Below the pieces are notes generated by a model, which searched no databases, was not told the DNA's origin, and saw nothing but the letters and a program-made list of their open reading frames with translations. From Melastoma dodecandrum (taxonomy: Eukaryota > Streptophyta > Magnoliopsida > Myrtales > Melastomataceae): a DNA stretch of 64,000 nucleotides. Shown piece after piece: positions 38,912 through 62,761 of this stretch. Numbering within the stretch: the stretch's first letter is position 1; each line of letters begins with the position of its first letter. A program made the position numbers and the translations under genes. The stretch is taken from assembly GCA_029817715.1 (NCBI GenBank), contig JARUPY010000465.1, forward strand, positions 4,081,501 through 4,145,500. The letters are read 5' to 3'.

Positions 38912-39655
38912 CTTTGACAATACCCCGTCTCCAGTTTGTTGATCGTTTTACATCTGGTTATGTCGAACTCAGGTGACAGTTTAACGTCAAGCACAGGTGA
39001 AATTCATGCTTTTAGTACATTGCGGTCTAGAGAGAGAGCACAGGGCAGGAAATGGAAACCGATTCCCACTTATAATTTTTAGGTTCCGTAGATGTCTCAC
39101 GTATAGGATAAGAGGAGAAAATGTATATAGCCGATGATGTAGATGCTTCTCCCTTTTTGTTATAGGATGTGAAAAGAAAAACAGAGCAGCTGAGGGCTCA
39201 TTTTTACTACTTTTCCATAAAAATGTTAATGAAAGAACTACCAAGTCTTTTTCTTTTTTCTGGGTTGCAGCAGCCATGTGTTTGTTGGATTGTGTATCCC
39301 GACAGCAGAAATGTGAATGGTATAACATATTGTAACCAGATTCCAACTTTTCTTTGTGTGTAGCCCCCTTGTGGATGGAAACTTCCTAGTTGTTAAGGTT
39401 TGGCATAACATTAGAGCACAGTCTCTCCTTTGGTGAATATCAGTCGGATGTGTTGGACTGATGTGATCTGGTGAGAGCTACACTCTGCACGAGGTCGTCC
39501 TTGCCCTGTTCCAACCATTTTAAACTGTTCTTGTTCTAAAAGAGGATTTGGGAACAAACTCTATTATCGGCAGAATCATTACCGAATTGCCTCAAGAGCT
39601 TTTTATGAATGTGCGGACAACTTGCAGATCTGTCCAAAACAAAGAATCAATCAAG
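38912..39655. other. Convergent 3' region between QWRF and zinc-finger genes
   Basis: Holds the 3' UTRs of the two convergent genes. From about 39567 the sequence matches the start of block 2 at about 52180 (CGAATTGCCTCAAGAGC and following), so the duplicated block begins inside this spacer. Confidence 0.6.
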
Positions 39656-40225
39656 TCAAGCTACTTCTTCGGACTTTGCTTTGGTCGCCGTCGACAGTCG
39701 TGTCTTCTTGGAAGGGTGAGGACTCTCCGCCACCTCTTCCTCCTCTGTCTTGGGAGTTGGCGGCGGCAGGTTCAGATCAAAATTGTGGAACCTTAGCCCA
39801 CTCGCCTCAGAAATGGACACACTGCCGATCCCTTTGACTTGTTTCGCAACACTCCGGTCGAAGTGGCTCCTCTTGTGCCCTCCCAGGGCCTGGCCGCTGG
39901 CGAAACACCTCCCGCAGACGGAACACTCATGCGATCCCCCTTTCCCTCCTGGCAACGAAGCAGAGGAGATTCCAGAGTCACTGCCATCGTATTCAGCGGA
40001 GGTAGAACTGTTGCCAAGGGAAACCTTCTTGTGGTCGAGTTCGTGACCACGACTGAGCATGATGAGGCAGAGGGCGAGATACTCTTCCTCTGAACGGGGG
40101 TGGAAGGGAAGGGCACAACGCCTGGAGCGCTTGCGCTTGGACCAGGAAGAGGAAGTGAGACTGAGATCAGAGTGGAAGGCAGTCTTCACCATTGGGGCAG
40201 GGGAGTTGATAGTCTCCATTGCCAT
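39656..40225 (-). CDS. Single-finger ZAT-like C2H2 transcription repressor
   Basis: A 189-residue intronless gene with ATG at 40225. It has the order of stress-type ZAT/STZ proteins: a basic B-box KRKRSRR (30-36), an L-box-like [14 protein letters not shown] (47-60), one Q-type zinc finger [21 protein letters not shown] (101-121; C-x2-C-x12-H-x3-H with plant-specific QALGGH), and an EAR repression motif FDLNLPPP (149-156). Related ZAT proteins carry two fingers. Here the region where finger 1 should lie (about 65-95) has no Cys, while the remaining finger matches finger 2. It probably acts in the nucleus as a repressor with altered DNA specificity. A TATA box lies 98 bases upstream of the start codon. 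Confidence 0.85.
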
Positions 40226-40322
40226 GTTTCTTTTTCTCCTTTTCTTTTATTTTACCTTGGGAAGAAATCTTCTTCTCTCGTGTTTGCGTGTGAATGGTAG
40301 AGATCACAAGGGGGAGTTGCCC

Positions 40323-40332
40323 TTTTTTTATA
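40323..40332 (-). promoter_or_regulatory. TATA box of the zinc-finger gene
   Basis: TATAAAAAAA on the minus strand, 98 bases before the ATG at 40225, implying a leader of roughly 65-70 bases. This segment has no counterpart beside the paralogue in block 2. Confidence 0.65.
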
Positions 40333-40649
40333 GGGCATTGTGATTTCAGTTTAAGTGAGGGAGGAGGTTGAACAAGGTACAAAATTGGGAACCACAAAAC
40401 TCAGGATGCTGACTTGACTGTTGACGTGCATGTGCATCTCTTTTCTTTTTTATCTATTGACCATTCATTAGTCTTTTGTTGATCAAATGAGGATTTTAGA
40501 ACCATTTTGGAGGGGGAAAGATGCCAAGACCGGCATTGTTTAACAGCTCGTCCCCCGGTATTTTGTATCCCATCCCTTTAAGTGTGCGAGTGGTTCGAGC
40601 CCATTCTATTCTTGGATTTGCATCACGTCAATCCATTCTGATAGGATTT

Positions 40650-40978
40650 TGTTGACACATGAATTTTGGGTTCTGTTCTCGAGAACTCGAGAAGAATAAG
40701 GAGTGTCGCTCGAGAAGTACTTGTAACCTCAAGTATGAACGTCACTTGAGAAACGTGTCTCGAGTAACATTGGATGATTACTCGAGAAAAGTTTCATCTC
40801 GAGAGACTAGGACACTTCAAATAAATAAGCTATGAAGTAATTCAGGCGCCAGGGGTATTTTGACCATGTCAATGAAAAGGACACGTGGCGAACCCAGAAA
40901 GGTTGGCTAAGACATGATGTGCATGGCTCCTATTAAATAGGGATTCAATCGTGCACACGATCTAAGAAGATTATATCC
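40650..40978. repeat. Probable outer insertion rich in CTCGAG motifs
   Basis: Similarity between block 1 and block 2 stops exactly at 40650 (block 2 equivalent about 52875). The new sequence begins TGTTGACACATG and has repeated CTCGAG/CTCGAGAA motifs at about 40678-40815, then a TATTAAATAG box near 40931. It may be the left part of an LTR into which the 40979-45403 LTR later inserted. Its right part would be 45409 to about 45800. No ends are proven. Confidence 0.4.
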
Positions 40979-41716
40979 TGTTGATATAATCTGGTTTTGA
41001 TGATGACAAAGGTTATGCATTGTTAATGTGCTATTTAAGTGTACAGAGAACATGTCTTCGAGTGTAGAAGGAGGTTTCTGTTATCTGAGCAATACGTAAA
41101 AGAGTTATGTGGAGTACTTCAATGGAGGAAACGATCTAGCCATCAGAAATGATGTTCTGAGAACAAGATCTACTATCGAGTCCATTATCTCTATTGTAGA
41201 GATGAGCGTCTGTGTCACAGATGCTATAACTCTTCTTGTTGGATACTTACTACGGTTTACAGAATGATATTTCTGTGAATGACGATTTCTTTATTGGAGA
41301 TTGTTCAATATGCGAGCACGTGAGATATCTCATACGTCTTTAAGTTAATTCTTATTGAATTAACTCTGCCATCACATCTAGGTTCATTCCTCGACCTTGA
41401 GTTGTTTTGGAAAGATTTATTTCCTTAACTAACGTGATCATATAATTATAGAATTTGGCTACAATTTAATCAGGTTGAAATCTCCCTTATATGGTGAGAA
41501 TATTTTACAACGGGAATGTTTTCATATTCTGGAAATAAATCAATCCCAATTCCAAATTCGTATAAGGAAGAGTGCTGATTCTGCTGTCGTAGAAATCAAC
41601 TTCTAAGCTCTAGTGATTAATCTGGTTTATTATTATCTGATATTACTAAGGATAATGTTTTGTGTTCTTGGAAGTTTTTCTACAGGATCGAATCATGGAG
41701 AAAATGATAAGTGGAT

Positions 41717-44690
41717 TGTACGTGCGCCTTCCAGCCTAGCACGCGCGTGGTGGTTCGGACGACCCGAGGATCCGGGCCCGCTCTCCAAGGCCCAACCGGT
41801 CGACGTCACGACTCGAGCGTCGGACGCTGTGGAAGGGAATTGGGTGATCCCTCCCTGGGTTCCTAACTGGGCTTGCTCGGGCCCTCTCCAATCGTCTCTG
41901 TTTTCCTAAGAGGCGGCGGGTGAAAGGCGGAGCATGATCCGAAGAAGGAACTTTCGGGAGAAATCGGGAGCGGCTCGTGTCATCAGTTCCTCATCCAAAA
42001 TGGCTCCGTAAAAAGGTTGTTGTTGTTTAACCTAGGTAAACTAAACGGAGTCGCCACCGACTTTATTTATAAAAGCTGTTTAAGTCGGAAAAAACAGTTG
42101 GTTCGGGGATTACTAGTTACTAACTCTTACATTCTAGCATGTGAAAAAGAGAGGTGGCGTTTGTTCCAAAAGATTTGCTTTTGTTTGACGGGCATTGGAC
42201 CCGATCCGGGCATGACTTCGGACTCATGTTAATGTTTTACGGGCGTTGGACCCGATTCAGGCTTTGGACCCGAATTCATGTTTGTTGATAGCAAACAACA
42301 TGCGACAATAAACCTATGAGCCTAAGGCATGCGGACAAGCACAAACAATTATTGAGATCAAAGGGGGCGGGGAAAGATGGTGACCGTGGACCTATGCACT
42401 TGGGCCCACGGCCCGTTACAAGTGGATTTTCTATCTTTTCAGGAAGGCCCGCACCTCCCCTTTTGTACCTCATGTGGTGGAAGCCGCTTGATTATCTTGA
42501 CATCGCAGGTGGAAAGATTCACGCGCCTTCGACAATCCTTCGAGAAGCTTGGGCCAGGCATTCGAAATTTGTGCATCCGTTGTACATGCATAGACCAAAA
42601 GACGAATTGTAAGTTATACAATATAAGAATTCACATGTGTTTTAAGTAAATAAACGGATGATCATGTTCATCGAACACCCTGTACACTTAATCATATTAC
42701 AAAGAGTTACTTAATTACGAATTTCAACTAACATAGATTGCGCACAGTACAGAAAACATATTATAATTTTGGTTAGGATTGTCCGATTCAATCAAAATTT
42801 GAATGAACCAACAGATCTCAAACTTAATGAAGAGTTTGTATGCTAAATTTTATGAAAATCTAACGGTGTCATCTCCCAAGATCAAGGAATAAAGGTGGCT
42901 ATCCGGAAAAACAGAACAGTTTGCACAGATTGTGTTGTTCCTATGATATTTTGGTCCTCGAATGTCCGATCGGAGTGAAAAAGGACTTCACGGAAAGGTA
43001 AATGAAGAATGTGTGTGAAAAATTTTACATGGATCCAACGGTTGGATCGTCAGATATACAGGTGTAAAAAGTCATACTATTTTGTAGACTCGGTCTGACT
43101 TCGGCTGGGTAAAGTTCGGGGAATAAAAATGGAAAACTTTACATTCTCAAGATGAAAAAAATGTGTATATATGTCAAAATCACCATGATGAAATGAAGAA
43201 CATATCTATAAAATTTGGCAATGATCCAATGGTGGGATCTGCCGTTATTGAATAAAGAACATTATAGCGACACTCAGGGAATCTTACGGAGTATATAGTC
43301 TGTTCGTAAGATTGTTTCACATTATGCTAGAATCTTTAATGGTTGACAATATGTATAGAACCATATTAAAGTCTAGTTTAACTGTGAAAAATTTGAGCAA
43401 GATCCAATGGTTAGATCTCTCGAAACATCCCCGGAAGCGATAATGCAACAGGCTGTCCTGCTGCGGCCAGCGAAAGTGACGGCCGTCTCAGGGGAAATAA
43501 CTCGATCCTCGATCAACCAAAAATTAAATAAAACTCCAAGATCATCACTTATTGTAGATCATTTGATCTTTTGAGGTCGAGGTTCGAAATCGTCCGTAAC
43601 CTCTTAAAAAAAATCAGCCTTTGGAGGTGTTGCCGCAAACAACAATTGAAATAGAAGGCCGGGAGAAATCCCGACACTTCCGTGCCACAAATGAATGCAA
43701 AATGGACCCCCAAAGCTACCGTGAAAGCTTTGAGGTCTAAGATTCGTACGAAAATGTGTTAGGGAGGAGTTTATGTGATTACGACCTTTTTTCGTCGTGA
43801 TCCAATACCGGAGGAAGGTGGTGCGCCGTCTGTCCCTTGTCTGTAACTTCGGCCGTCACGACCTTGTCCGAAGGCTCGTTCCTCACCCCATGGTGTGTGT
43901 GGTAGGCCAAAGAAGAAAGTGAACGACGGAGTTAGCATATCCAACATGGTAGAAGTATGCTGGAGTTAGCAAAGTGAGAGGAAGTCTCACCGAGGGGTTA
44001 CCTCGCCTCGGGGTGGTCCAAGGAGGATGAACGATGCCGGGAGGGTATCGGCTGGTAGACTGGTCAGGAGGCTTTGGCTCGTCAGCACTGGAGAGGGGGA
44101 GTCCTTGGCTCCGTTTTCTGTGTGTACGTCGGGAAGAGTTGGCCTCCGATTATATGTGGGGGGAGGAGGTGTTGGCCTCCAGTTATATGTAGAGGGAGGA
44201 GGAGTTGGCCTCCGATTCCCAGAGGGGTGAAGCTCAGACGTTTGTGTGTCTCCAAGGAGAGGGACGTCTGATTGTCCTCATTATTTGATAATTGTCTGAA
44301 AGGGGATGGGGATGATTTGTCTATGAGGAAGGAGAGGATTCCAGAGATCCTGATTGATTTTTTTTTACGTGTGATTATTGTCTAAAGGGGAATGGGAGGC
44401 TTTGGCTCCGAGGATTTTAGAGATCCTCTGGAGAATATCTGATTTCTTTTTGTCAGGGATAAGGATATTTTTTTTTTTTGGAAAGGAGATCATGGAGATA
44501 ACGTGTGAAAGAGAGGAACGAGAGGAACAGAAATATCTCCCTAAAATCTCGGATTGATTGGAGAAGAGATTATTTTCCCGTTTTTTTAGAAATAAAGTAA
44601 ATCAAGAGAGGAAAAGAACTATTCCGTGAAATATGGATTGATTGGAGGATTTTTTTAGATTTTATATTGTTTAAAATTTGGGGTATTACA
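41717..44690 (-). mobile_element. Nested Ty3/gypsy-type solo LTR with TGGAT target duplication
   Basis: The insertion begins TGTACGTGCGCC and ends GGGGTATTACA on the plus strand, so it has TG...CA ends. It is flanked on both sides by TGGAT (41712-41716 and 44691-44695). On the minus strand it starts TGTAATACCCC, a frequent start of plant gypsy LTRs, and contains GTCGGTGGCGACTCCG near 42060. There is no coding sequence in 2974 bp. Four diverged copies of a GATCCAAYGGTnnGATC box occur about every 180 bp between 42850 and 43430. A long solo LTR fits best; a deletion derivative of a complete element is possible. Confidence 0.75.
44128..44222. repeat. Three-unit tandem repeat in the nested LTR
   Basis: Three imperfect units of about 35 bp with the core GTTGGCCTCCGATTATATGT. 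Confidence 0.8.
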
Positions 44691-44962
44691 TGGATCAACT
44701 AGCCGTTGGTGATTGATTGGGAAACTCCTTTCTACGGACAAGCTTAAATGCAAGAGTGTAGCCACAGTTTCAACTTGTCGTTCTATCAAAAAGCTTACCA
44801 GAATCCTTGTACCTTCACCGTTGCAAAAGTTGAGAGCGTCCGTCGTGCATTCATCGAGCCGATCACCTTTGAGAGAGAGCGTCTTCTGTAGCTGCAGACT
44901 GTTGGTACTGTAGTTGCTAATTCTGTTTGTGTAGGTTGTTAATCACACAAGAAGTGTGCAAG

Positions 44963-45043
44963 GGCAGGTGGTAGCCGTTAAGCCATGAGGGCAGGTGGTA
45001 ACCGTCAAGCCACGTGGGCAGGTGATAGCCGTCAATCCACGGG
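44963..45043. repeat. Three-unit tandem repeat in the copia LTR
   Basis: Three imperfect units of about 27 bp with the core GGGCAGGTGGTAGCCGT-AAGCCA. Confidence 0.8.
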
Positions 45044-45403
45044 CTCAGTGAGGAGCCGGAGTCAGACACGTCGGTTGCGTGTGGGTGGAGTTAGTCACGT
45101 GTGTGCGTACAAGTTGTTAGTCACATTTCCGACAGAAGTGTGTACCTGTAAAGTCCCTTGATCAACAAATAGTGAATACGGCCTAATTGGGGTGAGCACT
45201 GGGAGAGTGAACGTACGCATTATTTGCGAAACAACTATAAATCTTTGTGTCGCACATATGAGATAACTAATATCAGAACTGGGAATCTGTCCAGCAGATC
45301 CAGTCTCTGTAATCTGATAGAACCACGCTTCTGTGATCGAAAAAGTGTCAAAACTCTTAAGGCACTAATTCAACCCCCTTCTTAGTACAATCCTATACCA
45401 ACA

Positions 45404-47809
45404 TATCTTAATTGAACAATTGTAGCTGAAAGATCCTGGGAACATAAAAGGCGAAAAGAACGAAGGAAAAGACACGATCAACTCCATAAGTCCAAATTTG
45501 GCTAAGTTGATCTGCACCTTTTACTCTCCCCACTGCATCCTGAAAGCGTCCTGAAACCATCACCACCTTTACTACATCCGACCACCGATCCACCAAGGTA
45601 GATTCCATTACAAAACAATCTGTTGTAGCCACCGCTCGTCCGCCCTCTGTCGTGAAGACCGTCGTCATCCTTTTGTCGTTTGATAATTTTCGTTGTCTGC
45701 AAGTGTTGTAAGAATCCAAACTATTATTAAATTTCGATTTAAGTGTCGTTTTATTTTTAATCTGCATTCTTTTACTTTACGACGACCACAAATCATTTGT
45801 AATTCGATACGTGTTGCGGGAAACATATTCCGCGTTAACAGAGTTGCATCAAGTCCTTCTATCTACGTACACGTAACTCGATTATCCGATACTTTTGAGT
45901 CTCGGCGAGGCCATCACTTCCGACTTCACTTCATTCGTCATCAGACAAGCTTAGACTTCTTAGATAAGGGCGGCGGCTGCTCTTGTCGGGGGAAGGGGAC
46001 ACCGATTCCCTTGACTAGCTTCTTTGCAATTCCATCCTGTGGCTGGTCTGGCGGCCACAAACGAGCATGACCGAGGCAGAGAATCGACTTGGGCTTTCAG
46101 TTGGAGGGAGTTTTGTTAGTGGGGAAGGAGTGATGAGTGGTGGATTTATCACCGGAAGGTTAGGGGTGGCTGCACCAAGGTTTGGTGTATTCTTATCATG
46201 AACAAAGGCGAGATTGTAGCCACCCCCAAGTCGTCCGTCATGAGCAAAGTTGAGTCACACCAAGTTGTCAGTCATGAGCAAAGGCGACATAGCCCAGCCA
46301 AACCTTGGCATGGTCGCACTAAGCTGTCAGTTACGACAATAATTAACAAAGTGGCTACGTTGAAAATTGATGTGTCTGCACACCAATCAAACGTACTAAT
46401 ATTTCGTTTTGAGCTTATATTATGTTATGAAATGAATTATCAAAATGACGCATGACATCTTTTCTGTTTTTTAATTTTTTTCTTCGCGTCTGGCGAGGCG
46501 TGAATCCTCACTTTGATACTAATTTATAAGTGAAAACGTGACATACTATATATTTTTATTTTCAATAGACTTAACTTTCAAGAGATCCATGTAGGGGTGA
46601 ATTATAAATGAATCCGGGTCTCATAAACGCCACCAATTAGACTTTCACAAAAAGAAATATACGTCAAGTAAGAGAGCTTTTTTTTTTTCTTTTTATATAT
46701 AATGATAATAATAATAACAACAAAACAACTCAGTTCTTCTTTTAAAGCAAATAGACTTCAGTATTTTTATATGTTTATAATGTATTTTGTTTAAATGATA
46801 CATTGAAAAGGACTAAACAAGATAATATAAATACGATGCTCATTTAAAATTAACTACAATGGATAATAAAATATAAAAGTCAATCCTTAAAGGATAAAGA
46901 AAACCATGACCTCGGTTTCATGGCTTAATTTATCAAACTCCTGTTTTCATTAGGCCGGCATGAGTTAGCATTCATTTGTCAATACAAACTTTTTTACTTT
47001 TAGCTTGCACCACAAAATTAAGCTTTTTTTTTTAGACATTTTTATTTGTTATAAATTTGTTTTTATTTTGTTTCGGGGGGGGGGGGGGGGAGACAACTAG
47101 TGGGCCGGATGAAGCCCATTTCTTTGGGCCACAGTAATGCGGGCTTAAAAAAGGAAATGAAGAAAGGTCCAAATGGAGTAGTTTAGGGCCAGGGTTAAAT
47201 AAATAGCACAAATTTATCACGCGGTCAATTAAATCCTGTTTAGATTTCAAAGAACGGGGGGCAATGGTAATATATGTCCTCCCTCGTGTGGATATATTAT
47301 TACAAAAGCACGTTGAATTAATTCTCTAAAATGAAATATTTTCAGCTAACGTTCAAGTCGATAAGAGAATTCAAAGAGTGAAAAAGCAAACCTCGGGATA
47401 CGTTTCAATTACAAGTCCTGGAATATGATGAAGGACAATGGTTGTTTATATGAGTCCCAACAATTGGTTTTATTTCCGTGGTAATAGAGCTTGTTATTTT
47501 GTATGAACTTATATGTTATTTTGTATCCGGAAATGACCGACCACATAAATTTGGATGACCCGGACAATGAGGGCACGAGTCTAGTGATTGAGATCCCTAA
47601 AAGATTCTTACAGTCGGATAAAACGTGCGGATGAAGTCCCCGATTGGGACTTCTCGGTCCATTCACCTTCTCGTGAGGAGCCTTACTTTTGTTTATGCAT
47701 ATTAAATTTAACAACTAGACATGTTTTGCCAAGACGACCAACTTCATCGGAAACAGTTACATTAAAAGGCGGACGACAAAAGCGAAATATGAGTAGCCAA
47801 CACGGTGCC
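45404..47809. other. Block 1 spacer, with segments also present in block 2
   Basis: 45404 to about 45870 has no match in block 2. About 45885-46090 (ATCCGATACTTTT-GAGTCTCGG to GAGCATGACCGAGGCAGAG) matches 52885-53050 and 58803-58968. About 46150-46380, with repeated GTCATGAGCAAAG-type units, matches 59055-59290. About 46570-47030 matches 61020-61560. About 47540-47809 matches the 3' flank of the block 2 DUF26 gene (59955-60366). A 16-base G run is at 47075-47090. No gene is supported. Confidence 0.65.
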
Positions 47810-50925: not shown

Positions 50926-52274
50926 TAATTATTTTAAAAAAAGAGTAATAGATAATAGTGACGATAATAATATGGCTTAGAAAATAATACGACCCCATCC
51001 ATATGAAACTTTTTTTTGTCAATTTTTTTATTTGTTATAAAATTTGTTTTTATGTTGTTCTTATTTAATTATTGATGCTGGTTATGATTATTTTATGGTG
51101 ATATGAGGAATGAATGAATGGGAAATTAATTATTTTTTTATGAATGGAATAAAAGAGTTTGGTCCTTTTGTCAGGTGGTTGGGTGTAATAGTTAACACGA
51201 GAGTAAGAGAGTCCGCGGATCATTAGGATGCTCTCCATTTAATAAAAAATGGAGAGTCTCAATTTCATGATTAGGATTTTAATCCCACGATCAGTTTATT
51301 TCGAGCATTATAAAAATTCTTTATTACCCTTAAGAAGTTAATAAATTATTTCCTTTAATATATAAAAATAAAAAATTATTATAATTCTTTTGATCTTTAT
51401 TGTTTAATACTTATAGTTTAAGATTTATGATTGAATACGTTAGTCTAACATTTAAGATTGGGTTATTTAAAAACTTATAATTTAAGTTTTAAGGTTTAGA
51501 ATTTAAGCATTTAACTTTTAATATTTACAATGTTTTAATATTTTTGATTTATAATTTATGGTTTGACTTTTAATATATTTTGGTTTTGGATTTAATTTAT
51601 GATTTATTTTGTTATTAATTAAATGTAGTGTTTTAAAAATGTAAAAGTATTTAAAATGATTATATATAGAGTAATATCAAGGCTCTTGCCATAATTAAAA
51701 TAAAAAAATTTTCATCCGTTAGATTAAAAATAGGAACATCCTATCCTAGCCATAAAATGGACAATTTCCATTTCAATAGAAATGAAAAAAATCCCAGCGC
51801 AGGGCAGGAGCTTCCGGGGAATTGGCATGGACGGAGGGAGGGTGAAGGAGGGGGGTAAACAGGGCATCGAGGGTGGCGGAACCCAGGGGAGGAGAGGGAG
51901 GGGGCATGGGGTTATATCCCATCACAGTTGAATGAAGAGCAAGGGGAAGCAATACGAAGAACAATGCAGGCGGTTACTTGATGGGGGAACATTCCAGCGG
52001 ACACTCTCCGTTTTATTAGAAATGGAGAGGATCCAGATCCCCAGCTCTGCACACGGCCCTCCCAGCCAATGCCGCAGACAATGCCTCTGACACTCCCGGG
52101 GTGTATTTGGTAATAAACTCTGTCAACGAATCTGGTGGAATGATCGAATTAACTGTCTGACTACTCTTCACTGTTAGTAGAATCATCGGCGGAATCATTA
52201 CCGAATTGCCTCAAGAGCTTTTTATGAATGTGCGTACAACCTGCAGATCTGTCTAAAACAAAGCATCGATCAAT
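50926..52274. other. Spacer between blocks 1 and 2
   Basis: Up to about 51000 the sequence continues the block 1 upstream segment (GATAATAATATGGCTTAGAAAATA, matching 61550-61575). 51.0-51.75 kb is very AT-rich. A GC-rich stretch at 51.79-52.15 kb has short minus-strand frames (for example VSEALSAALAGRAVCRAGDLDP) that match no family I recognise. Block 2 begins at about 52180. Confidence 0.5.
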
Positions 52275-52772
52275 TCAAGCTACTTCTTCCAACTTTGCCT
52301 TCTTGGAAGGGTGAGGACTATCCACCACCTCTTCCTCCTCCGTCTCGGGGTTCAGATCGAAATCGTGGAACCTGTGCCCGCTCGCCTCAGAAACAGATAC
52401 ACTGGTGATCCATTTGAATCGTTTCGCACCTCTCCGGTCGAAGTGGCTCCTCTTGTGCCCTCCCAGGTCTTGGCCGCTGGCGAAACACCTGCTGCAGACG
52501 GAACACTCATGCGATCCCCCTTTCCCTCCTGGCAATGAAGCAGAGGGGATCCTGGAGTCACCGCCATCGTTTTCAGCGGAGGAAAAACTGTTGCCAAGGG
52601 AAACCTTCTTGTGGCCGGGTTCATGACCACGAGTGAGCATGACAAGGCAGAGGGTGAGATACTCGTCCTCTGAATGGGGGTGGAAGGGAAGGGCACAACG
52701 CCTGGAGCGCTTGCGCTTGGTCCAGGAAGAGGAAGCGTGACGGAGATCAGAGTGGAAGGCAGTCGTGGCCAT
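52275..52772 (-). pseudogene. ZAT-like zinc-finger paralogue, block 2 copy, start and promoter lost
   Basis: Closely similar to the gene at 39656-40225, but the segment holding the original start codon, leader and TATA box is absent: similarity stops at about 40217/52794. The first in-frame ATG is at 52772, giving 165 aa and losing the first about 10 residues. The B-box KRKRSRR and EDEYLTLCLVMLTRG are kept. The finger reads [21 protein letters not shown], so the plant-signature QALGGH has Ala changed to Asp. The EAR region is reduced to FDLNPET, losing the second Leu. The frame is still open, so it could be a diverged gene, but regulatory and functional losses make a decaying pseudogene more likely. 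Confidence 0.65.
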
Positions 52773-53078
52773 TGGGGCAGGGGAGTTGATAGTCTCGATG
52801 AGCCTTTCATTCAATGAATGATTAAAACTTTTCTCGGATCTGCATTGCGTCAATCCAATCTGACAGGATCTGCATTCATTTTATCCGATACTTTTTTTGA
52901 GTCTCGGTGAAGCTATCACTTCCCGCTTCACTTCATTCACCACCAGACATGTCTGGACTTGTTGGATAAGGGCAGACAGCCAACACCCCCAGTTGTTGGC
53001 TGCAAGTTCAAATCGAAATCGGGGCACGAGCATGACCGAGGCAGAGGATTGACTTCGGTTTCTTTCATATTTTAATTT
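52560..53078. repeat. 519-bp direct repeat, left copy, flanking the Tnt1-like element
   Basis: Begins ACCGCCATCG inside the zinc-finger paralogue and ends TATTTTAATTT. I found no difference from the copy at 58478-58996, and both are 519 bp. It ends directly at the TTTAGGG tract preceding the 3' LTR. Confidence 0.93.
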
Positions 53079-53095
53079 AGGGTTTAGGGTTTAGG
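53076..53095 (+). repeat. Short telomere-type TTTAGGG tract at the insertion joint
   Basis: Two complete TTTAGGG units and one TTTAGG lie exactly between the end of the 519-bp repeat (sharing its last TTT) and the truncated end of the 3' LTR (sharing GG). The corresponding place after the right copy (58997, CGTATGTGG) has no such tract. Confidence 0.9.
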
Positions 53096-53784
53096 AGAGA
53101 GACGATGCCCGGAACTTGTCTTAGACCTGTACTGAACAAACAGAAACAAACTGCACTTCGACAATGCCACAATAACCAGCCCAACAACACCAACTTCCAG
53201 AGATATATGAATCCCGACGTCCACCGAATAGCAACCAGCGCAAAAGGAATAAAAGAGAGACACCAAGATTTTACGTGGAAAACCTCTCAACGTAAGAGGA
53301 AAAACCACGGCCCGAACTCCACCTTTCTCCACTATCAGTAACAGGAATGGGTAACACAACAAGTCCTTCTTCTCTAGCCAAACTAGAGTATAACCATCGA
53401 GATCCTCAATCTCGGCTCCCTCCAAGGCTAAACATCACCACTCAAGGGCGGATTACAACAAATAACCCGGCATCTACTTCAAGAGCACTACGGAGATAAT
53501 GACAACATCTCGTAACGATTCAACCACTAAAACGACGGGCTCGTTGAGAGGATCAATACCGTGAAGTTTCGTCGAAAACAGACGACGAATCGAACCCCGA
53601 TCGGCCGCGTCTTCTTCTTCTTCTTCCTCTCCTTTTTTTTTTCTTTCGCTCTCTGATGTCTTCAGCTGTTTTTGTATGTGGGGTGTCACCCTTCTTTTTC
53701 AAAGCCACTGATGGGATTTCATCCCACAATTGAATTGTCAAACTTGGGTGGGGCCCACATGGGCTTGACAAAAAAAACCCAACA
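53094..53784 (-). repeat. 3' LTR of the Tnt1-like element, terminally truncated
   Basis: Matches the 5' LTR from its seventh base (GGAGAGAGACGATG) to CCCAACA. The other LTR begins TGTTGGGG; here that end is replaced by the TTTAGGG tract. Confidence 0.92.
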
Positions 53785-53797
53785 AATCTCCCCCTCA
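53785..53797 (-). promoter_or_regulatory. Polypurine tract of the Tnt1-like element
   Basis: GAGGGGGAGATTT on the minus strand abuts the 3' LTR and overlaps the stop codon of gag-pol; it would prime plus-strand cDNA synthesis. Confidence 0.85.
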
Positions 53798-56700
53798 AGT
53801 CCATGTGGGGGACTCGACCATACCCGCCTTGTCTCGACACCATAAGAACTTCATTGTTGACAAAGCCTTCGTCATCATATCCGATGCATTCTCATCGGTA
53901 TGGATCTTGCCAAGTCGCAAAGTCTTCATCTCCAACTCATTCCGAATCCAATGATAACGGACATCAATATGCTTCGACCGAGCGTGGAAGGTCGCGTTCT
54001 TGGCGAGATGGATAGCACTTTGACTGTCACTGTGAAGAATATAACTCTCTTGCCCAATACCGAGCTCAAGTAAGAACCTCTTCAACCATATCAGTTCTTT
54101 GCCCGCTTCGGTGATAGCTATGTATTCTGCCTCTGTGGAAGATAAAGCTACACATTTTTGTAGTCTTGATTGCCATGATACTGCTCCTCCTGAAAAGATC
54201 ATCAAATAACCTGACGTAGATTTCCTGGAATCAACATCACCAGCCATGTCCGCATCTGCATAACCAACTAAGATCGGCTCATCAATGCCAAAGCATAGGC
54301 AAAATCGAGAAGTACCTTTCAGATACCTCATAATCCACTTAACCGCCATCCAATGCTCTTTTCCAGGGTTTGATAGAAATCGACTCACAACACCAACTGC
54401 ATGAGCAATATCTGGCCGTGTACACACCATAGCATACATCAAACTGCCCACTGCAGATGCATAAGGAACTTTACCCATGTGTTCTCTATCCCTCTCTGTC
54501 GAAGGACAATGAGAAGTACTCAACTTGAAATGGCTCGCAAGTGGAGTACTAACTGTTTTGCATCCACTCATACTGAATCTCTGCAAAACCTTTTCGATAT
54601 ATCTCTCCTGAGACAACCAAAGCTTCCCACTCTTCCTCTCACGGGCAATCCTCATCCCAAGTATCTGCTTAGCTGGTCCCAAGTCTTTCATTGCAAAAGA
54701 CTTGCTCAAATCTGCTTTCAAAGACGAAATCTTTGCAGTATCATGTCCAACAATTAACATATCATCCACATAAAGCAAGAGAATAATAAAAACATCATCA
54801 GCAAACCGCTTCACATAAACACAATGATCAGAATCTGTTCTTTCATACCCATGGTCAGTCATAAAGGAGTCAAACCTTTTATACCATTGCCTCGGGGCCT
54901 GCTTAAGGCCATACAAGCTCTTCTTCAGCTTACAGACAAGATCCTCCTTTCCGCTCACTACAAATCCTTCCGGCTGATTCATGTAGATCTCTTCATCTAA
55001 ATCACCGTGAAGGAATGCTGTCTTTACATCAAGTTGTTCAATTTCCAAGTTTCTACTTGCTGCCAAACCAAGAACAGCTCGGATAGAAGTCATCTTGACC
55101 ACAGGAGAAAATATCTCATCAAAATCAATACCTTTCTTCTGACCAAATCCTTTCACAACTAATCGAGCCTTATATCTCTGTTGTGAACCACTCTCATCAG
55201 GCTTAAGTTTATAAACCCATTTGTTCTTCAGCGCTCTCTTGCCCTTAGGCAGCTTCACCAACTCAAATGTATTGTTCTCACGCAATGATCTCATCTCATC
55301 TTGCATGGCTCTCATCCACTGCTCCTTTTGCTCATCTAACATAGCCTCATCAAAGCATTCAGGTTCTCCCCCGTCAGTGAGCAATACATAATCATGTGGA
55401 GAATACCTCTGTGATGGTCTATGCTCTCTGTTCGATCGTCTCAAAACCACTTGAGGCTCAGCAGTGTTGTCTCCGACCTCAACTGTAGGCTCATCTGTAA
55501 TAACATCATCTGTCTGATTCTCCGTCACAGTAGGAGGCATAGAAGATGATGAACTCAAATCAATAGGTGCTTCTGTAGGTAGTTTCCTCTTTTCTGACTT
55601 TTCACAGTCATCAATCATCTGGTCTTCAAGGAACACTACATCTCTGCTTCTGACAATTTTTCTTTCGGCAACGTCCCATAATCTGTAACCGAACTCTTCA
55701 TGTCCGTACCCCAGAAAAATGCATTGCTTTGACTTCGGGTCCAATTTAGCTCTTTCATCTTTAGGGACATGAATGAATGCCCTGCAACCAAATATCCTCA
55801 AATGATCATAGGATACTTCTTTTCCTATCCACACTCTCTCTGGAATATCAAAACCAAGAGGCACTGAAGGTGAAAGGTTAATCAAATACACTGCAGTAAG
55901 CAAAGCTTCACCCCAAAAGGGTTTTGGAAGTTTAGCATGAGAAAGCATACATCGAATCCGCTCCTCTATAGTGCGGTTCATTCTTTCAGCAACTCCATTC
56001 TGCTGAGGAGTCTTCGGCACTGTCTTCTCAAGCCTAATTCCATGTTCACGACAATAATGCTCAAATGGACCTCGATACTCACCACCGTTATCTGCTCGGA
56101 CACATTTCAGTTTTCTGCCAGTCTGTCTCTCAACTGAAGCATGAAAACACTTGAAAGAATCAAGCACCTGATCTTTCGATCTCAAACAGTAAGCCCACAC
56201 TTTCCGAGAATGATCATCAATAAATGTCACAAAATACAAAGCACCTCCAAGGGATCTATCAACCATGGAGCATACATCTGTGTGAATAAGATCAAGAATG
56301 TGCGATCTCCGAGAAGAATATGACCTCTGAAATGCAAATCTATGCAACTTGCCAGCAAGACAATCAGTACAAGTCTTCAGAGATATACCTGTAATCGGGA
56401 GTAGTTGTTTCTTCATGAGGATGCCAAGTCCCTTTTCACTCAAGTGACCAAGTCGTCTATGCCACAACTCACAAGAGGAATCTTCAGAGACATTGACCTC
56501 CCCCTTGATCAACTTGGCATGAGTCATATACAAGGTGTTGGACTTCTTCCCTTTAGCAACAATGAGGTTGCCTCGGCTCAACTTCCATTTTCCGTTGCTG
56601 AAGGTGCTAGCATAACCTTCATCATCAAGAACGCCCGTGGAGATCAACTGAAGGCGCATATCTGGGACATGTCGAACATCTTTCAACACCAATCTGCAGC

Positions 56701-57736
56701 CAATATCAGTTTCCAAGCAAACATCTCCCATGCCGACAACATTCACAACAGCTTCATTTCCCATCCTTACGCTACCATAATCACCAGCAGTATAGGATGC
56801 AAAAGAATCACGCATAGAAGTCACATGAAAAGAAGCGGCAGAGTCAATTACCCAAGTAGAGTCCTGACAAGTGAGATTAATAGAAGTCTCATCAGAAAGA
56901 ATGGCAACATCACCATCAAGAGCAAGAGCAGCTGTCTCACTCTGTTTCTGGTTACTATCTTCACCTTTCTCTTTCAAATTCTCCCTCTTGAGTATCCTGC
57001 ACTCTCTCTTAATATGACCCAACTTTCCACAATGATAGCACTTGATCTTATTTCTGGACTTGGACCTCCTCTTAAAACCATCTTTCTTCTCAGGATGAGG
57101 AGAACCCTTGTTCCGACTCCTTCCTCGCCTTTCGGTCACAAGTGCTTCGGATCGTGGAGTAAACCCTTGCTCAGCTCTTCGCGTTTCTTCATTAAGCAAG
57201 CTTTCTGTTACTAACTTCATATTCAACTTCCCATTCGGAGCTGAATTATTGAGCGCAACAACCAAGGTCTCCCAACTCTCTGGCAGTGTACTCAACAAAA
57301 GACATGCCTGCAATTCATCGCTGATCGGAATTTCAAGGTTGGCCATCTGATTCACAAGGTCTTGGAACATACTCATGTGTTCCGATATGCTCGACCCATC
57401 CTTATATCGCAAATAGACAAGTCTCTTGATCAACGAAGTCTTATTCTGAGGCGTCTTCCTCTCATAAAGATTCTTGAGCTTCTCCCACAAGGCATGCGCA
57501 TTTGTTTCCTCTGAAACATGGTAGAAGATGCTATTATCAATCCACTGTCGAATAAACCCGACCGTCTTCCTGTGGAGCTTCTTCCAATCCTCATCAGACA
57601 TTGTACCAGGCTTGGAATTTTCAATAGGATCATATAAATCTCTACAACATAAGATGTCTTCCATTCTCGGCTTCCACATAGAGTAGTTTGAAGCCGTGAG
57701 CTTTATCATAGTGCTGCTGGTCGTTGTATCCTCCAT
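53795..57736 (-). CDS. Tnt1-like copia gag-pol polyprotein, full length
   Basis: One uninterrupted 1313-residue frame. Gag occupies about 1-230, then a zinc knuckle CYHCGKLGHIKREC (233-246). Protease has WVIDSAASFH (298-300 Asp-Ser-Ala, as in Tnt1-type elements). The integrase HHCC region is about 426-460 (HRRLGHL, CTDCLAGK), and the catalytic residues are D487 (HTDVC), D549 (RADNGGEY) and E584 (QQNGVAERMNRTI). Reverse transcriptase includes ARLVVKGFGQKKGIDFDEIFSPVVK, LDVKTAFLHGDLDEEIYM and YVDD (989-992). RNase H carries YADADMAGD, SSTEAEYIA and HSDSQSAI. All catalytic motifs are present, so the copy could be autonomous. The polyprotein would be processed in cytoplasmic particles, and the cDNA integrated in the nucleus. 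Confidence 0.96.
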   Translation of the reverse strand: MEDTTTSSTMIKLTASNYSMWKPRMEDILCCRDLYDPIENSKPGTMSDEDWKKLHRKTVGFIRQWIDNSIFYHVSEETNAHALWEKLKNLYERKTPQNKTSLIKRLVYLRYKDGSSISEHMSMFQDLVNQMANLEIPISDELQACLLLSTLPESWETLVVALNNSAPNGKLNMKLVTESLLNEETRRAEQGFTPRSEALVTERRGRSRNKGSPHPEKKDGFKRRSKSRNKIKCYHCGKLGHIKRECRILKRENLKEKGEDSNQKQSETAALALDGDVAILSDETSINLTCQDSTWVIDSAASFHVTSMRDSFASYTAGDYGSVRMGNEAVVNVVGMGDVCLETDIGCRLVLKDVRHVPDMRLQLISTGVLDDEGYASTFSNGKWKLSRGNLIVAKGKKSNTLYMTHAKLIKGEVNVSEDSSCELWHRRLGHLSEKGLGILMKKQLLPITGISLKTCTDCLAGKLHRFAFQRSYSSRRSHILDLIHTDVCSMVDRSLGGALYFVTFIDDHSRKVWAYCLRSKDQVLDSFKCFHASVERQTGRKLKCVRADNGGEYRGPFEHYCREHGIRLEKTVPKTPQQNGVAERMNRTIEERIRCMLSHAKLPKPFWGEALLTAVYLINLSPSVPLGFDIPERVWIGKEVSYDHLRIFGCRAFIHVPKDERAKLDPKSKQCIFLGYGHEEFGYRLWDVAERKIVRSRDVVFLEDQMIDDCEKSEKRKLPTEAPIDLSSSSSMPPTVTENQTDDVITDEPTVEVGDNTAEPQVVLRRSNREHRPSQRYSPHDYVLLTDGGEPECFDEAMLDEQKEQWMRAMQDEMRSLRENNTFELVKLPKGKRALKNKWVYKLKPDESGSQQRYKARLVVKGFGQKKGIDFDEIFSPVVKMTSIRAVLGLAASRNLEIEQLDVKTAFLHGDLDEEIYMNQPEGFVVSGKEDLVCKLKKSLYGLKQAPRQWYKRFDSFMTDHGYERTDSDHCVYVKRFADDVFIILLLYVDDMLIVGHDTAKISSLKADLSKSFAMKDLGPAKQILGMRIARERKSGKLWLSQERYIEKVLQRFSMSGCKTVSTPLASHFKLSTSHCPSTERDREHMGKVPYASAVGSLMYAMVCTRPDIAHAVGVVSRFLSNPGKEHWMAVKWIMRYLKGTSRFCLCFGIDEPILVGYADADMAGDVDSRKSTSGYLMIFSGGAVSWQSRLQKCVALSSTEAEYIAITEAGKELIWLKRFLLELGIGQESYILHSDSQSAIHLAKNATFHARSKHIDVRYHWIRNELEMKTLRLGKIHTDENASDMMTKALSTMKFLWCRDKAGMVESPTWT

Positions 57737-57764
57737 TCACTCAGCACAATAGTCTGACAACTGA

Positions 57765-57776
57765 GCTCTGATACCA
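57765..57776 (-). promoter_or_regulatory. Primer-binding site (initiator tRNA-Met)
   Basis: TGGTATCAGAGC on the minus strand, three bases inside the 5' LTR, is the standard copia complement to the 3' end region of initiator methionine tRNA. Confidence 0.93.
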
Positions 57777-57779
57777 GTT

Positions 57780-58477
57780 TGTTGGGGAGAGAGACGATGC
57801 CCGGAACTTGTCTTAGACCTGTACTGAACAAACAGAAACAAACTGCACTTCGACAATGCCACAATAACCAGCCCAACAACACCAACTTCCAGAGATATAT
57901 GAATCCCGACGTCCACCGAATAGCAACCAGCGCAAAAGGAATAAAAGAGAGACACCAAGATTTTACGTGGAAAACCTCTCAACGTAAGAGGAAAAACCAC
58001 GGCCCGAACTCCACCTTTCTCCACTATCAATAACAAGAATGGGTTACACAACAAGTCCTTCTTCTCTAGCCAAACTAGAGTATAACCATCGAGATCCTCA
58101 ATCTCGGCTCACTCCAAGGCTAAACATCACCACTCAAGGGCGGATTACAACAAATAACCCGGCATCTACTTCAAGAGCACTACGGAGATAATGACAACAT
58201 CTCGTAACGATTCAACCACTAAAACGACGGGCTCGTTGAGAGGATCAATACCGTGAAGTTTCGTCGAAAACAGACGACGAATCGAACCCCGATCGGCCGC
58301 GTCTTCTTCTTCTTCTTCCTCTCCTTTTTTTTTTCTTTCGCTCTCTGATGTCTTCAGCTGTTTTTGTATGTGGGGTGTCACCCTTCTTTTTCAAAGCCAC
58401 TGATGGGATTTCATCCCACAATTGAATTGTCAAACTTGGGTGGGGCCCACATGGGCTTGACAAAAAAAAACCCAACA
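57780..58477 (-). repeat. 5' LTR of the Tnt1-like element
   Basis: Complete 698-bp LTR with TGTTGGG/CCCAACA inverted ends. It is followed at 58478 by the right copy of the 519-bp host repeat. Confidence 0.93.
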
Positions 58478-58690
58478 ACCGCCATCGTTTTCAGCGGAGG
58501 AAAAACTGTTGCCAAGGGAAACCTTCTTGTGGCCGGGTTCATGACCACGAGTGAGCATGACAAGGCAGAGGGTGAGATACTCGTCCTCTGAATGGGGGTG
58601 GAAGGGAAGGGCACAACGCCTGGAGCGCTTGCGCTTGGTCCAGGAAGAGGAAGCGTGACGGAGATCAGAGTGGAAGGCAGTCGTGGCCAT
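58478..58690 (-). pseudogene. Truncated zinc-finger paralogue (N-terminal part only)
   Basis: The right 519-bp repeat contains the N-terminal 71 codons of the 52275-52772 paralogue (ATG at 58690). It then runs into LTR sequence at 58477, so the finger and EAR regions are absent. Confidence 0.9.
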
Positions 58691-58996
58691 TGGGGCAGGG
58701 GAGTTGATAGTCTCGATGAGCCTTTCATTCAATGAATGATTAAAACTTTTCTCGGATCTGCATTGCGTCAATCCAATCTGACAGGATCTGCATTCATTTT
58801 ATCCGATACTTTTTTTGAGTCTCGGTGAAGCTATCACTTCCCGCTTCACTTCATTCACCACCAGACATGTCTGGACTTGTTGGATAAGGGCAGACAGCCA
58901 ACACCCCCAGTTGTTGGCTGCAAGTTCAAATCGAAATCGGGGCACGAGCATGACCGAGGCAGAGGATTGACTTCGGTTTCTTTCATATTTTAATTT
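58478..58996. repeat. 519-bp direct repeat, right copy
   Basis: Same sequence and length as 52560-53078. After it the host sequence continues uniquely (CGTATGTGGTTTC), matching the order expected for block 2. Confidence 0.93.
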
Positions 58997-60366
58997 CGTA
59001 TGTGGTTTCAGTTCGAGGGAGTGGGGGAAGAGCTACGCGTATTTGATAGTTTACCAAAAGTACGGTGTACGCATATCATGTTGTCAATCATGAACAAAGG
59101 CGAGATTGTAGCCATGCCAAGTTATCAGTCATGACCATGAGCAAAGTTGACGTTGTTGTAGCAATACCAAGTTGTCAGTCATTAGCAAAGGCGACATAGC
59201 TCCACCAACCTTTGGTGTGGCCTCACTAAGCCGTCCGTTATGACAATAAACAATGGTGTGGCTACCTTGAAAATTAGTGTGACTGCACCAATGTAACATC
59301 CCCATTGTTTATATTTTATCGTAAATGTAATGTTATTTGAATACGAAAAATACTAAAATTTGTTATTTGGAGACGGAGAGTATTATTCTCCAGAGAACAT
59401 AATTCTTTGTTACTCATCCATCCTTCTTAGTCCCCGAAAATAGACGTGGGAGAATCTCTTATGACTCCATAATTATAAATTATTGAATTGCATACATAAA
59501 GAAAAAACACGTTAAAAAAATATTTTCTGATCTGTTTTAAAATGATATTTTTTTTAAATATAAAATAATCTCGAGTTCGGACTTATTTATTATTTTTTCG
59601 TCAACAAAGTTAAAGAAAATTTCTTTTTTCGGGCAAAAAAAAAATTGTATAATGACATGTAGAAACCCTGTTAGCGTTTTTATATCTTTTGAAGGCAATT
59701 CTAGGATAGGATGACAACGAAACTAACAAGCCTCGGTTATTGACTCACCATTTGGGAAGAAGTTTCCTAACAATTTGATGCCCAATTTCACACTCCGAGA
59801 GTCACACATAATTCTCTTAATCTTATAAATAAGTTTACAAATATAATTTTTAAAAAAATACTAAATCACATTTTCCTGATTATTATCGATTAATTATAAT
59901 AAGAAAATATTCTAAACTAATTTCAACATATCCCTAAACGCATTAAAAATATTCAGGTATGACCGACCACATCAATTTGTATGCGCTCGACAATGAAGAC
60001 ACAAGTCTTGTAAAAAGAAGTGATTGAGATCACTGAACTTCTTACAGTCGGATGAAACTTGCGGTTGTTGTCCCCAATTGGGACTTCTCGGTCCATTCGC
60101 CTTCTCATGAGGGGCCTTACTTTTCCTTATGCATATTAAATTGAACGACTGGATATGTTTTGCCAATAAGACTTGGACGACCAACCTCATCCGAAACAAT
60201 TACATTAAAAGGCAGATGACAAAAGCGAAACATAAGTAACCAACACGATACCTTATTTCAGAAGCGAAATTAAAAAAGAAATGTAAGGAGGTTTTGTTCC
60301 GTGGCATCGTGCGTCGGAATAGTGGAGGACTCGAGAGAATGTCCAGAAAAACCTTGGGTGACATAC
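58997..60366. other. Block 2 spacer
   Basis: About 59055-59290 matches 46150-46380 of block 1. 59.30-59.94 kb is AT-rich and has no match in block 1; it begins ATGTAACATCCCC, which may be an LTR-like edge, but no partner or target duplication was found. About 59955-60366 matches the 3' flank of the block 1 DUF26 copy. Confidence 0.5.
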
Positions 60367-60789
60367 TCAAAGCTCCTCTCTGAGTGGAGTCCATTGATAA
60401 CTCAAAGAGCAGTCCACGAGGCCGACACCGACCCCTTTGGAGAGCCCACAATACTGATACATCTTCACAACCGCAGCATTCAGACAATCGAGGCAGTCTT
60501 GGTCCGAGATGGACGACCTGCAAATTCCGCGAGCGTACACTGTGTCCGGCCCAATCGTGCACGAGTCGTAGTGCGTCCGGTAGGTTGGGGTGTCTAACAT
60601 AACCCATTGGGTTGCATAATGAGCAGCCCAGGTATAGTCACAGGATGGGGCTTGGCCTCCCGCACACTCAATCCTGACTGGTGTCGTATTGGGAGCACCT
60701 TGCACAGAATAACAAAAGGAAGAAACTACAACGCACACGAGAAGAACAACTACCATATTCTTAAGGATAGCAGGCATACACAATTCCAT
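60367..60789 (-). CDS. Gnk2/DUF26 secreted antifungal-type protein, intact copy
   Basis: 140 aa from the ATG at 60789 (MELCMPAILKN); the longer open frame upstream is leader sequence. Residues about 10-31 form a signal peptide ending SVQG/A. The mature part has the ginkbilobin-2 (DUF26) layout: C42 and C50 near the start, the family motif C90-x8-C99-x2-C102 (GICRSSISDQDCLDCLNAA), C114, and the closing LVDCSLSYQ with C127. The single domain, without transmembrane or kinase regions, makes it a Gnk2-type secreted protein, not a cysteine-rich receptor kinase. Relatives bind mannose and inhibit fungal growth in the apoplast; this activity is inferred. Cys count and length (about 109 mature residues) match the type protein. 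Confidence 0.85.
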   Translation of the reverse strand: MELCMPAILKNMVVVLLVCVVVSSFCYSVQGAPNTTPVRIECAGGQAPSCDYTWAAHYATQWVMLDTPTYRTHYDSCTIGPDTVYARGICRSSISDQDCLDCLNAAVVKMYQYCGLSKGVGVGLVDCSLSYQWTPLREEL

Positions 60790-62275: not shown

Positions 62276-62761
62276 TCACTTAGGGAGGACATCCTCCCAT
62301 TTCACAACACTCACACCAATCTCCTTTAATTTATCAGCATCTTTATAGCGCCCCCCTGGCACGACAAGCATGCACTTATATCGTGCGCAACATATGTCGA
62401 TGAAATGATCAGTTACGGATACTCCATCCATATCTTCTTGCGCGATAATAATAACTGCATTGGGGCATTCGATTCTTTGGGAACAATCTCCAATCATCAC
62501 ATTGAATGTAAGCTTCATAGCATGCAATTTAGCACCCGGTGTCACCAGCCGAAGCTTCACATTTGCCTTATGGAATTCTTCCCTGTTTACTTGCCTTTTC
62601 AACATGAAGGCCTGCCTATTGTATTCAGAGACCGCAGGAAACTGAGGATTAAGCTCCAAAAATTTATTAGCAACATTCTCCATCGCCTGCTCTATACATG
62701 CCGCGCTTTGCACAGGAACCTGGCATGCTGAAGCAGCCCAGTAGATACTCATTTTTGACAT
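62276..62761 (-). CDS. Small protein resembling a degenerate NYN (PIN-like) domain
   Basis: 161 aa from the ATG at 62761. The sequence upstream (TACTTGTAG at 62763-62771) looks like a splice acceptor, so a 5' exon may exist. The start SIYWAASACQVP lines up with the NYN core pattern (V-x-WDxENCQVP), but the metal-binding Asp and Asn are replaced. The later PGAKLHAMKLTFNVMIGDCSQR and AVIIIAQEDMDGVSVTDHFIDICCARYKCMLVVPG follow the pattern of the strand with K-AD, the SGDxDF loop and the GYxVLLA strand, again without the acidic residues. NYN domains in MARF1/limkain-type proteins act on RNA; this one looks catalytically dead. The assignment rests on pattern only. Confidence 0.45.
   Translation of the reverse strand: MSKMSIYWAASACQVPVQSAACIEQAMENVANKFLELNPQFPAVSEYNRQAFMLKRQVNREEFHKANVKLRLVTPGAKLHAMKLTFNVMIGDCSQRIECPNAVIIIAQEDMDGVSVTDHFIDICCARYKCMLVVPGGRYKDADKLKEIGVSVVKWEDVLPK

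What the first reader, a model, noticed from the sequence alone, without database searches (positions are those of the whole stretch)
52560..58996. 519-bp host duplication flanks an intact retrotransposon in place of a 5-bp target duplication
Seen: the Tnt1-like element is bounded by two direct host copies of equal length (519 bp) in which I find no difference. Known: copia integrase makes 5-bp target duplications. Inference: the element entered a widely staggered break (two distant nicks filled in during repair), or a local duplication arose together with the insertion. The two copies look at least as similar as the LTR pair (about 0.6% different), so both events can be of one age. This would be a retrotransposon captured by break repair and not by normal integration.
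Basis: partly seen in the sequence, partly recalled or inferred. Interest (0 to 1): 0.9.

Follow-up and report, generated by a model that had tools for sequence, protein, structure and literature searches.

The report
Retrotransposon trapped in telomere-tagged break repair
A young plant retrotransposon sits between two identical 519-base copies of host DNA, with a clipped end joined to the host by a snippet of telomere repeat, which suggests that it was stitched into a broken chromosome and did not jump in by its usual route.

Summary
Window 52560-53078 and 58478-58996 are identical over 519 bp with no extension on either side, and they flank a Ty1/copia element. The left LTR lacks its outer 6 bp, and 15 bp of plant telomere repeat (AGGGTTTAGGGTTTA, in register with the TTT that ends host copy 1) fills the gap between host and LTR; GG is shared with the LTR. 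In the same genome, 7 of 7 other close LTR pairs carry a perfect 5-bp target duplication. A diverged local paralogue supports the host order U-D-V (D = the 519 bp) as ancestral.

Best explanation: repair of a break with ends offset by about 519 nt, filled in on both sides. Retrotransposon cDNA was joined precisely at one LTR end. At the other it was joined after telomerase-type extension of the host 3' end, with a 2-nt microhomology. The ingredients are known separately; my capped searches listed no report of the combination. It is one locus in one assembly, without reads or a true empty allele. Filler copied from a telomeric template, and a two-step history, remain open.

The parts
52560..53078 (.). 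Host copy D1 (519 bp), continuous with the left host flank U; ends in ...TAATTT
   Evidence: 0 of 519 differences from D2, no extension either side; U-D continuity is conserved in the paralogue at 39563-40219
53079..53093 (+). 15-bp telomere-repeat filler AGGGTTTAGGGTTTA; with the preceding TTT (53076-53078) and following GG (53094-53095) it reads TTTAGGGTTTAGGGTTTAGG
   Evidence: sequence; only place of TTTAGGGTTTAGGG in the window; absent after D2
53094..53785 (-). 3' LTR of the minus-strand element, lacking its outer 6 bp (TGTTGG in + view); GG 53094-53095 ambiguous with the filler
   Evidence: alignment to the complete LTR covers its positions 7-698; 4 substitutions and 1 A-run gap
53795..57736 (-). 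Open 1313-aa gag-pol frame of a Ty1/copia element
   Evidence: four pieces searched apart: Retrotran_gag_2, zf-CCHC, Pol_BBD, gag_pre-integrs, rve, SH3_retrovirus, RVT_2
57765..57776 (-). Primer-binding site TGGTATCAGAGC (initiator tRNA-Met type, recalled)
   Evidence: read from sequence; places the 5' LTR on the right
57780..58477 (-). Complete 5' LTR, TG...CA ends, joined without loss to D2
58478..58996 (.). Host copy D2 (519 bp), continuous with the right host flank V
   Evidence: D-V order conserved in the paralogue at 45882-46381
52275..52772 (-). C2H2 zinc-finger gene crossing the U/D boundary, open through D1 (ATG taken as the first Met of the open frame); the D2 copy (ATG at 58690) runs into the LTR after 71 codons
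   Evidence: PF13912; translations
39563..46381 (.). Diverged local paralogue of the locus: U-D part 39563-40219, a small D piece 40606-40647, then after about 5.2 kb D-V part 45882-46381; stand-in for the empty site

Best explanation
A Ty1/copia cDNA was captured during repair of one chromosome break that had ends offset by about 519 nt. (1) Inferred: two breaks in opposite strands, at U|D and D|V, gave ends that shared the 519 nt. (2) Inferred: both single-stranded stretches were filled in, so each side kept a full D. This works for either polarity: 5' overhangs by ordinary fill-in, or 3' overhangs by CST-guided Pol alpha-primase. (3) Shown at sequence level: the complete 5' LTR end is joined without loss to the start of D2. 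Whether integrase (a half-integration) or end joining made this join is open. (4) Shown: the host end ...AATTT carries AGGGTTTAGGGTTTA in register with its last three T, in the strand orientation that telomerase makes on a 3' end. Inferred: telomerase, or a copy of a telomeric template, added it. (5) Shown: the filler meets the LTR at a 2-nt GG overlap with loss of 6 LTR bases, as in microhomology-type end joining. The result keeps the zinc-finger reading frame open through copy 1, and puts a telomere motif and the element about 307 bp upstream of its ATG.
For: 519 of 519 identity with sharp ends. 7 of 7 other close LTR pairs, 4.69 kb apart start to start like the focal pair, have a 5-bp and not 6-bp target duplication; the focal one has none. 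The telomere run occurs nowhere else in the window, and no 12-mer of it occurs elsewhere there to serve as a local template. The genome carries TTTAGGG-type repeats: 2350 matches to three units against 0 to the reversed control. U-D and D-V are each collinear in the paralogue, and the first 0.7 kb of V matches only this locus and that paralogue. Precedents in print, passages read: short telomeric insertions at mammalian breaks, with 3 or more in-register nucleotides at 14 loci (35%) against at most 1.56% expected, and direct duplications at 3 of 66 horse loci, ascribed to staggered breaks (PMC7215372); tandem duplications from offset nicks by CST-Pol alpha fill-in (PMC8355091); rice insertions of 10-1000 bp, including tandem duplications, ascribed to offset nicks (Vaughn and Bennetzen 2014, as summarised in PMC7407515); a proposal that telomerase extends free 3' ends in plant gene 5' regions (PMC3022908).
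Against: One locus only. No reads and no true empty allele were available; the paralogue is diverged and lacks about the last 24 bp of D and the first 4 of V, so it does not cover the exact D|V base. 519 nt is far longer than the 43-nt overhangs in the mouse experiments whose passages I read. The right end is as exact as in normal integration. Three in-register T are weak by themselves (about 1 in 64 by chance). Telomere motifs are common in this genome, and shorter shared words occur in the window (an 8-mer 4 kb away, a 10-mer 10 kb away), so copying is possible. In small, non-random samples of other telomeric sites no near-identical flanking duplication across the array was seen: 0 of 29 loci with an array, within about 1.5 kb, many overlapping, and 0 of 4 loci within 3.5 kb (one lies in an older 85% tandem array, one has a 24-bp repeat, 96%, on one side only). 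The event is therefore not shown to recur.
Confidence: 0.6

Rival explanations
1. Two steps: the element first inserted normally by integrase at ACCGC with a 5-bp duplication. Later a break at or just inside its left LTR was joined to the broken end (U-D) of an element-free sister or homologue, with telomeric filler. The 519-bp duplication then comes from unequal joining, not from a staggered break.
For: The right junction is exact, and D starts with the would-be target 5-mer ACCGC. Both routes give the same final sequence. An unrepaired integration gap at the left end would place the break near the LTR tip.
Against: Needs the second break to fall within about 6 bp of the LTR tip in an element of about 5.4 kb by coincidence, unless an integration gap caused it. 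D1 and D2 show no difference that would separate two events in time.
Confidence: 0.2
2. The filler is not telomerase product: an end-joining polymerase (Pol theta type) annealed the TTT end to a telomere motif elsewhere, copied 15-17 nt and then annealed GG to the LTR. (This concerns the filler only, so it overlaps with the best explanation.)
For: 2-nt overlap at the LTR side; telomere motifs are frequent in this genome.
Against: No good template nearby: nearest shared 8-mer 4 kb away, no 12-mer elsewhere in the window. The copy is perfect and in the telomerase orientation. Sequence alone cannot separate the two.
Confidence: 0.3
3. Pre-existing tandem duplication of D, or a telomere motif already at D's end in the host, into which the element inserted.
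For: Plant promoters often carry telo boxes (PMC3022908, passages).
Against: The motif follows D1 but not D2. The paralogue joins D to V without it, although its alignment lacks the last bases of D. No 5-bp duplication flanks the element.
Confidence: 0.07
4. Assembly artefact (collapsed or mis-joined repeat).
For: No reads available; identical 519-bp copies about 5.9 kb apart.
Against: An assembler is unlikely to create telomeric bases and a 6-bp LTR clip. The two copies have different flanks in one 6.3-Mb contig.
Confidence: 0.06

Closest known systems
Short interstitial telomeric sequences inserted at double-strand breaks (mammals; PMC7215372, passages and tables read)
   Same: A few telomere units at a break, in register with the broken end; direct duplication of target at 3 of 66 horse loci
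   Different: There the units themselves are the insertion; here they are the bridge to a captured, nearly complete retrotransposon, in a plant, with a 519-bp duplication
Tandem duplications from offset nicks in rice and mouse cells (PMC7407515 and PMC8355091, passages read; the Arabidopsis paper, Schiml 2016, was not held and seen only as a reference)
   Same: Duplication of the stretch between two nicks; rice insertions of 10-1000 bp cover this length
   Different: A 5.4-kb element and telomeric filler lie between the copies; the mouse breaks in the passages read had 43-nt overhangs
Integrase-independent retrotransposition (Tf1; proposed for plant tandem insertions; PMC12786077, passages read)
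   Same: LTR element placed without the usual route
   Different: That route uses homology to existing elements by Rad52/SSA; no such homology is seen at this site
Telomerase origin proposed for plant telo boxes (PMC3022908, passages read); break repair suggested for short plant telomeric repeats (PMC8621592, passages read)
   Same: Telomere motif added to a free 3' end in a gene's 5' region
   Different: Proposed there as single units from statistics; here about 2.9 units (15 bp of new sequence) at one identifiable repair junction

Membership tests
Ty1/copia LTR retrotransposon | gag, integrase before reverse transcriptase, LTR pair, tRNA primer site | tested here: met
   primer site read. 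The Tnt1 lineage itself was not tested
Ordinary integrase insertion | 5-bp target duplication and complete LTR ends | tested here: not met
   focal flanks differ and the left LTR lacks 6 bp; 7 of 7 other close LTR pairs meet it
Offset-nick tandem duplication | identical direct copies of a host stretch | tested here: met
   0 of 519 differences
Offset-nick tandem duplication | stretch single in the unmodified site | tested here: inconclusive
   one D seen in the diverged paralogue; no true empty allele
Offset-nick tandem duplication | two nicks in opposite strands at U|D and D|V | not testable with these tools
   inferred from the product only
Telomeric insertion at a double-strand break | telomere units absent from the unmodified site | tested here: inconclusive
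   absent after D2; the paralogue lacks them but its alignment does not cover the exact base
Telomeric insertion at a double-strand break | broken end in register with the telomere repeat | tested here: met
   three bases TTT, G-strand running 5' to 3' off the host end
Telomeric insertion at a double-strand break | made by telomerase | not testable with these tools
   needs mutants
Integrase-independent homologous insertion | homology between element and target | tested here: not met
   no shared base at the right join, 2 nt (GG) between filler and LTR at the left; no self-match between element and flanks at word size 20

The most novel reading that the evidence does not exclude
A plant telomerase/CST end-processing event caught in the act away from telomeres: a long 3' single-stranded host end was extended by telomerase and filled in, and a retrotransposon cDNA was used to bridge the gap (in the 5'-overhang version, a cDNA half-joined by its own integrase). 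In one event this duplicated the gene's start, kept the gene's frame open, and left a telo-box-like motif and a retrotransposon in its upstream region. It would be a direct footprint of the proposed telomerase origin of plant telo boxes.
Probability: 0.35. Interest if true: 0.78.

Novelty: new variant of a known kind. Interest (0 to 1): 0.6.

Why it matters
If true, it ties three things that are studied apart into one sequence-level event: offset-nick duplications, telomerase action at internal breaks, and capture of retrotransposon cDNA. It offers a concrete case for the proposal that plant telo boxes arise by telomerase at breaks. It also shows that a missing or very long target duplication can be a repair scar, which annotation that requires 5-bp duplications would discard. 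The pattern (identical duplication + element + telomeric join) can be sought automatically in any plant genome.

Tried and rejected
Rejected: ordinary integration (7 of 7 other close LTR pairs have 5-bp duplications, this one has none); homologous insertion (no homology at the joins); a local template for the filler (no 12-mer elsewhere in the window; a 10-mer lies 10 kb away); gene conversion of the left LTR patch from a known relative (in the 14 LTRs of the 7 close copies only one of the four left-LTR bases recurs, in 5 of 14; among 20 diverged LTR loci one shares another of the four; a genome-wide query with the patch did not complete); an inherited telomeric end (the C130 row that began before the LTR is a chance GGGTTTGAAG flank beside a normal 5-bp duplication). 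The alignment gives 8 focal LTR differences; four of those columns are a shift at the A-run end, and the pairwise alignment gives 4 and one gap.

Led nowhere: a genome-wide list of telomere motifs of exactly this length (not completed); the exact 15-mer duplication test at the first 30 loci of the list (29 gave an array, no hit; it would miss copies more than about 1.5 kb away) and four 7-kb loci. No homologous-protein, structure or PDB searches were made, and the organism was not identified.

Full report
What is there. The window lies in a 373-Mb genome of 607 contigs, at 4.08-4.15 Mb of a 6.3-Mb contig. Reading the + strand: left host flank U; host copy D1 (52560-53078); 15 bp AGGGTTTAGGGTTTA (53079-53093); an LTR that lacks its outer 6 bp (53094-53785); the coding part of a Ty1/copia element on the minus strand with one open 1313-aa frame; a complete LTR with TG...CA ends (57780-58477); host copy D2 (58478-58996); right host flank V. 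D1 and D2 are identical at 519 of 519 positions, and identity ends at once on both sides. A query holding D matches the genome at full identity only at these two places (40 of 89 candidates scored; for the last 297 bases of D, all 3 candidates scored).

D1 ends ...TAATTT. The next bases complete TTTAGGGTTTAGGGTTTAGG, which is the plant telomere repeat (the unit AAACCCT is stated in PMC3022908, passages read). TTTAGGGTTTAGGG with up to one mismatch matches the window only here (two overlapping matches, 0.01 expected by shuffling). In the genome, three units match 2350 times and the reversed control 0 times, so repeats of this type are at home here. The last GG is shared with the LTR, whose complete form starts TGTTGGGGAGAG; six LTR bases are gone. 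D2 is followed by V, not by the motif. The motif thus occupies exactly the join between host and element.

Is the lack of a 5-bp duplication unusual for the family? Yes. One search returned LTR pairs of seven other close copies (contigs C130, C272, C498, C297, C233, C589, C504), about 4.69 kb apart start to start, so full length by spacing; their insides were not read, and the list is a lower bound. All 7 of 7 carry a perfect duplication of 5 bp and not 6. One of them has identical LTRs (C130, 0 of 696), so the family has been active recently.

Which host order is old? Within the window lies a diverged duplicate of this region. It aligns with U-D at 39563-40219 (85%), across the U|D point, with a 42-bp D piece at 40606-40647, and, after about 5.2 kb of other sequence, with D-V pieces at 45882-45971, 46061-46099 and 46195-46381. 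The D-V alignment is collinear but lacks about the last 24 bp of D and the first 4 of V, so it supports U-D-V as the ancestral order without covering the exact D|V base. The first 0.7 kb of V matches only this locus and that duplicate. No other allele of the site turned up in the assembly.

Age. The two LTRs differ by 4 substitutions and one A-run gap. All 4 lie within 82 bp, 53338-53419 (chance 0.006; noticed after the fact). At 3 of the 4 sites all 14 LTRs of the seven close copies agree with the right LTR; one of 20 diverged LTR loci shares one of those three bases. The changes are therefore clustered in the left LTR, some 245-325 bp from the repaired join, and do not look like steady decay. 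At that rate three differences would be expected between D1 and D2 and none is seen (P 0.05). A recent event with a local burst of changes in the left LTR fits; so would errors of reverse transcription.

Mechanism. A duplication of a host stretch around an insert is what remains when two nicks in opposite strands, here 519 nt apart, open into a break and both overhangs are filled in. Tandem duplications of this origin are proposed for rice insertions of 10-1000 bp (Vaughn and Bennetzen 2014, as summarised in PMC7407515, passages) and shown for mouse cells with 43-nt 3' overhangs, where the fill-in is done by CST-guided Pol alpha-primase (PMC8355091, passages). The same passages name CST as the complex that fills in telomere ends. 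That is why the 3'-overhang version is attractive here: the host top strand would end in a long single strand finishing ...AATTT-3', a telomerase-type substrate, and the observed bases AGGGTTTAGGG... are the next ones in register, on the right strand. In the 5'-overhang version integrase could have made the exact right join as a half-integration, because the joined strand would be the correct one. The sequence does not choose between them. The left join then has a 2-nt overlap (GG) and loss of 6 LTR bases, as in microhomology-type joining. The literature on mammalian interstitial telomere insertions gives the closest parallel: 3 or more in-register nucleotides at 14 loci (35%) against at most 1.56% expected, and direct duplications at 3 of 66 horse loci, ascribed to staggered breaks (PMC7215372, passages and tables).

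Effect on the gene. D holds the start of a C2H2 zinc-finger gene (minus strand, ATG at 52772 if the first Met of the frame is used; PF13912). Through U-D1 the frame is open; the D2 copy runs into the LTR after 71 codons. A plain 5-bp insertion at the U|D point would have cut the gene; the duplication leaves one open copy, but with the telomere motif and the element from about 307 bp upstream of its ATG. That the gene is expressed or used is not shown.

Limits. It is one locus in one assembly. The systematic test (telomere motifs of this length across the genome, then flanking duplications) could not be run because the tool did not answer in 20 tries. Small, non-random samples of other telomeric sites showed no comparable near-identical duplication across the array (0 of 29 loci with an array out of 30 looked at; 0 of 4 loci, of which one lies in an older 85% tandem array and one has a 24-bp, 96% repeat on one side). 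Ten paper searches, whose lists were partly capped, listed no paper whose title or abstract start describes a retrotransposon joined through telomere units between long host duplications. I read passages of six papers only, and subscription journals are mostly not held.

Noticed in passing
53338-53419 (left LTR): All four LTR substitutions fall in 82 bp of the left LTR, about 245-325 bp from the telomeric join; at three of the four sites all 14 LTRs of the seven close copies agree with the right LTR. Possible repair-associated mutation cluster or reverse-transcription errors.
   Followed up: partly
39563-48883 versus 52182-61525: Old local segmental duplication holding paired zinc-finger genes and flanking DNA (pieces of 76-87% identity); the left copy has about 5.2 kb of other sequence inside the D-equivalent.
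   Followed up: partly
61880-62374 and 63507-64000: Direct repeats 98% identical about 1.6 kb apart at the window's right edge, perhaps the LTRs of another, short element cut by the window end.
   Followed up: no
G000 contig C94, locus L076 3496-3516: Telomere units next to an 85% tandem duplication of about 1.2 kb; possibly an older relative of the pattern or a satellite.
   Followed up: no
G000 contig C40 81779-88046: Telomere units recur about every 2.07 kb within a repeated context (TGGGCTTCAGGG + units), apparently a tandem repeat carrying telomere motifs.
   Followed up: no
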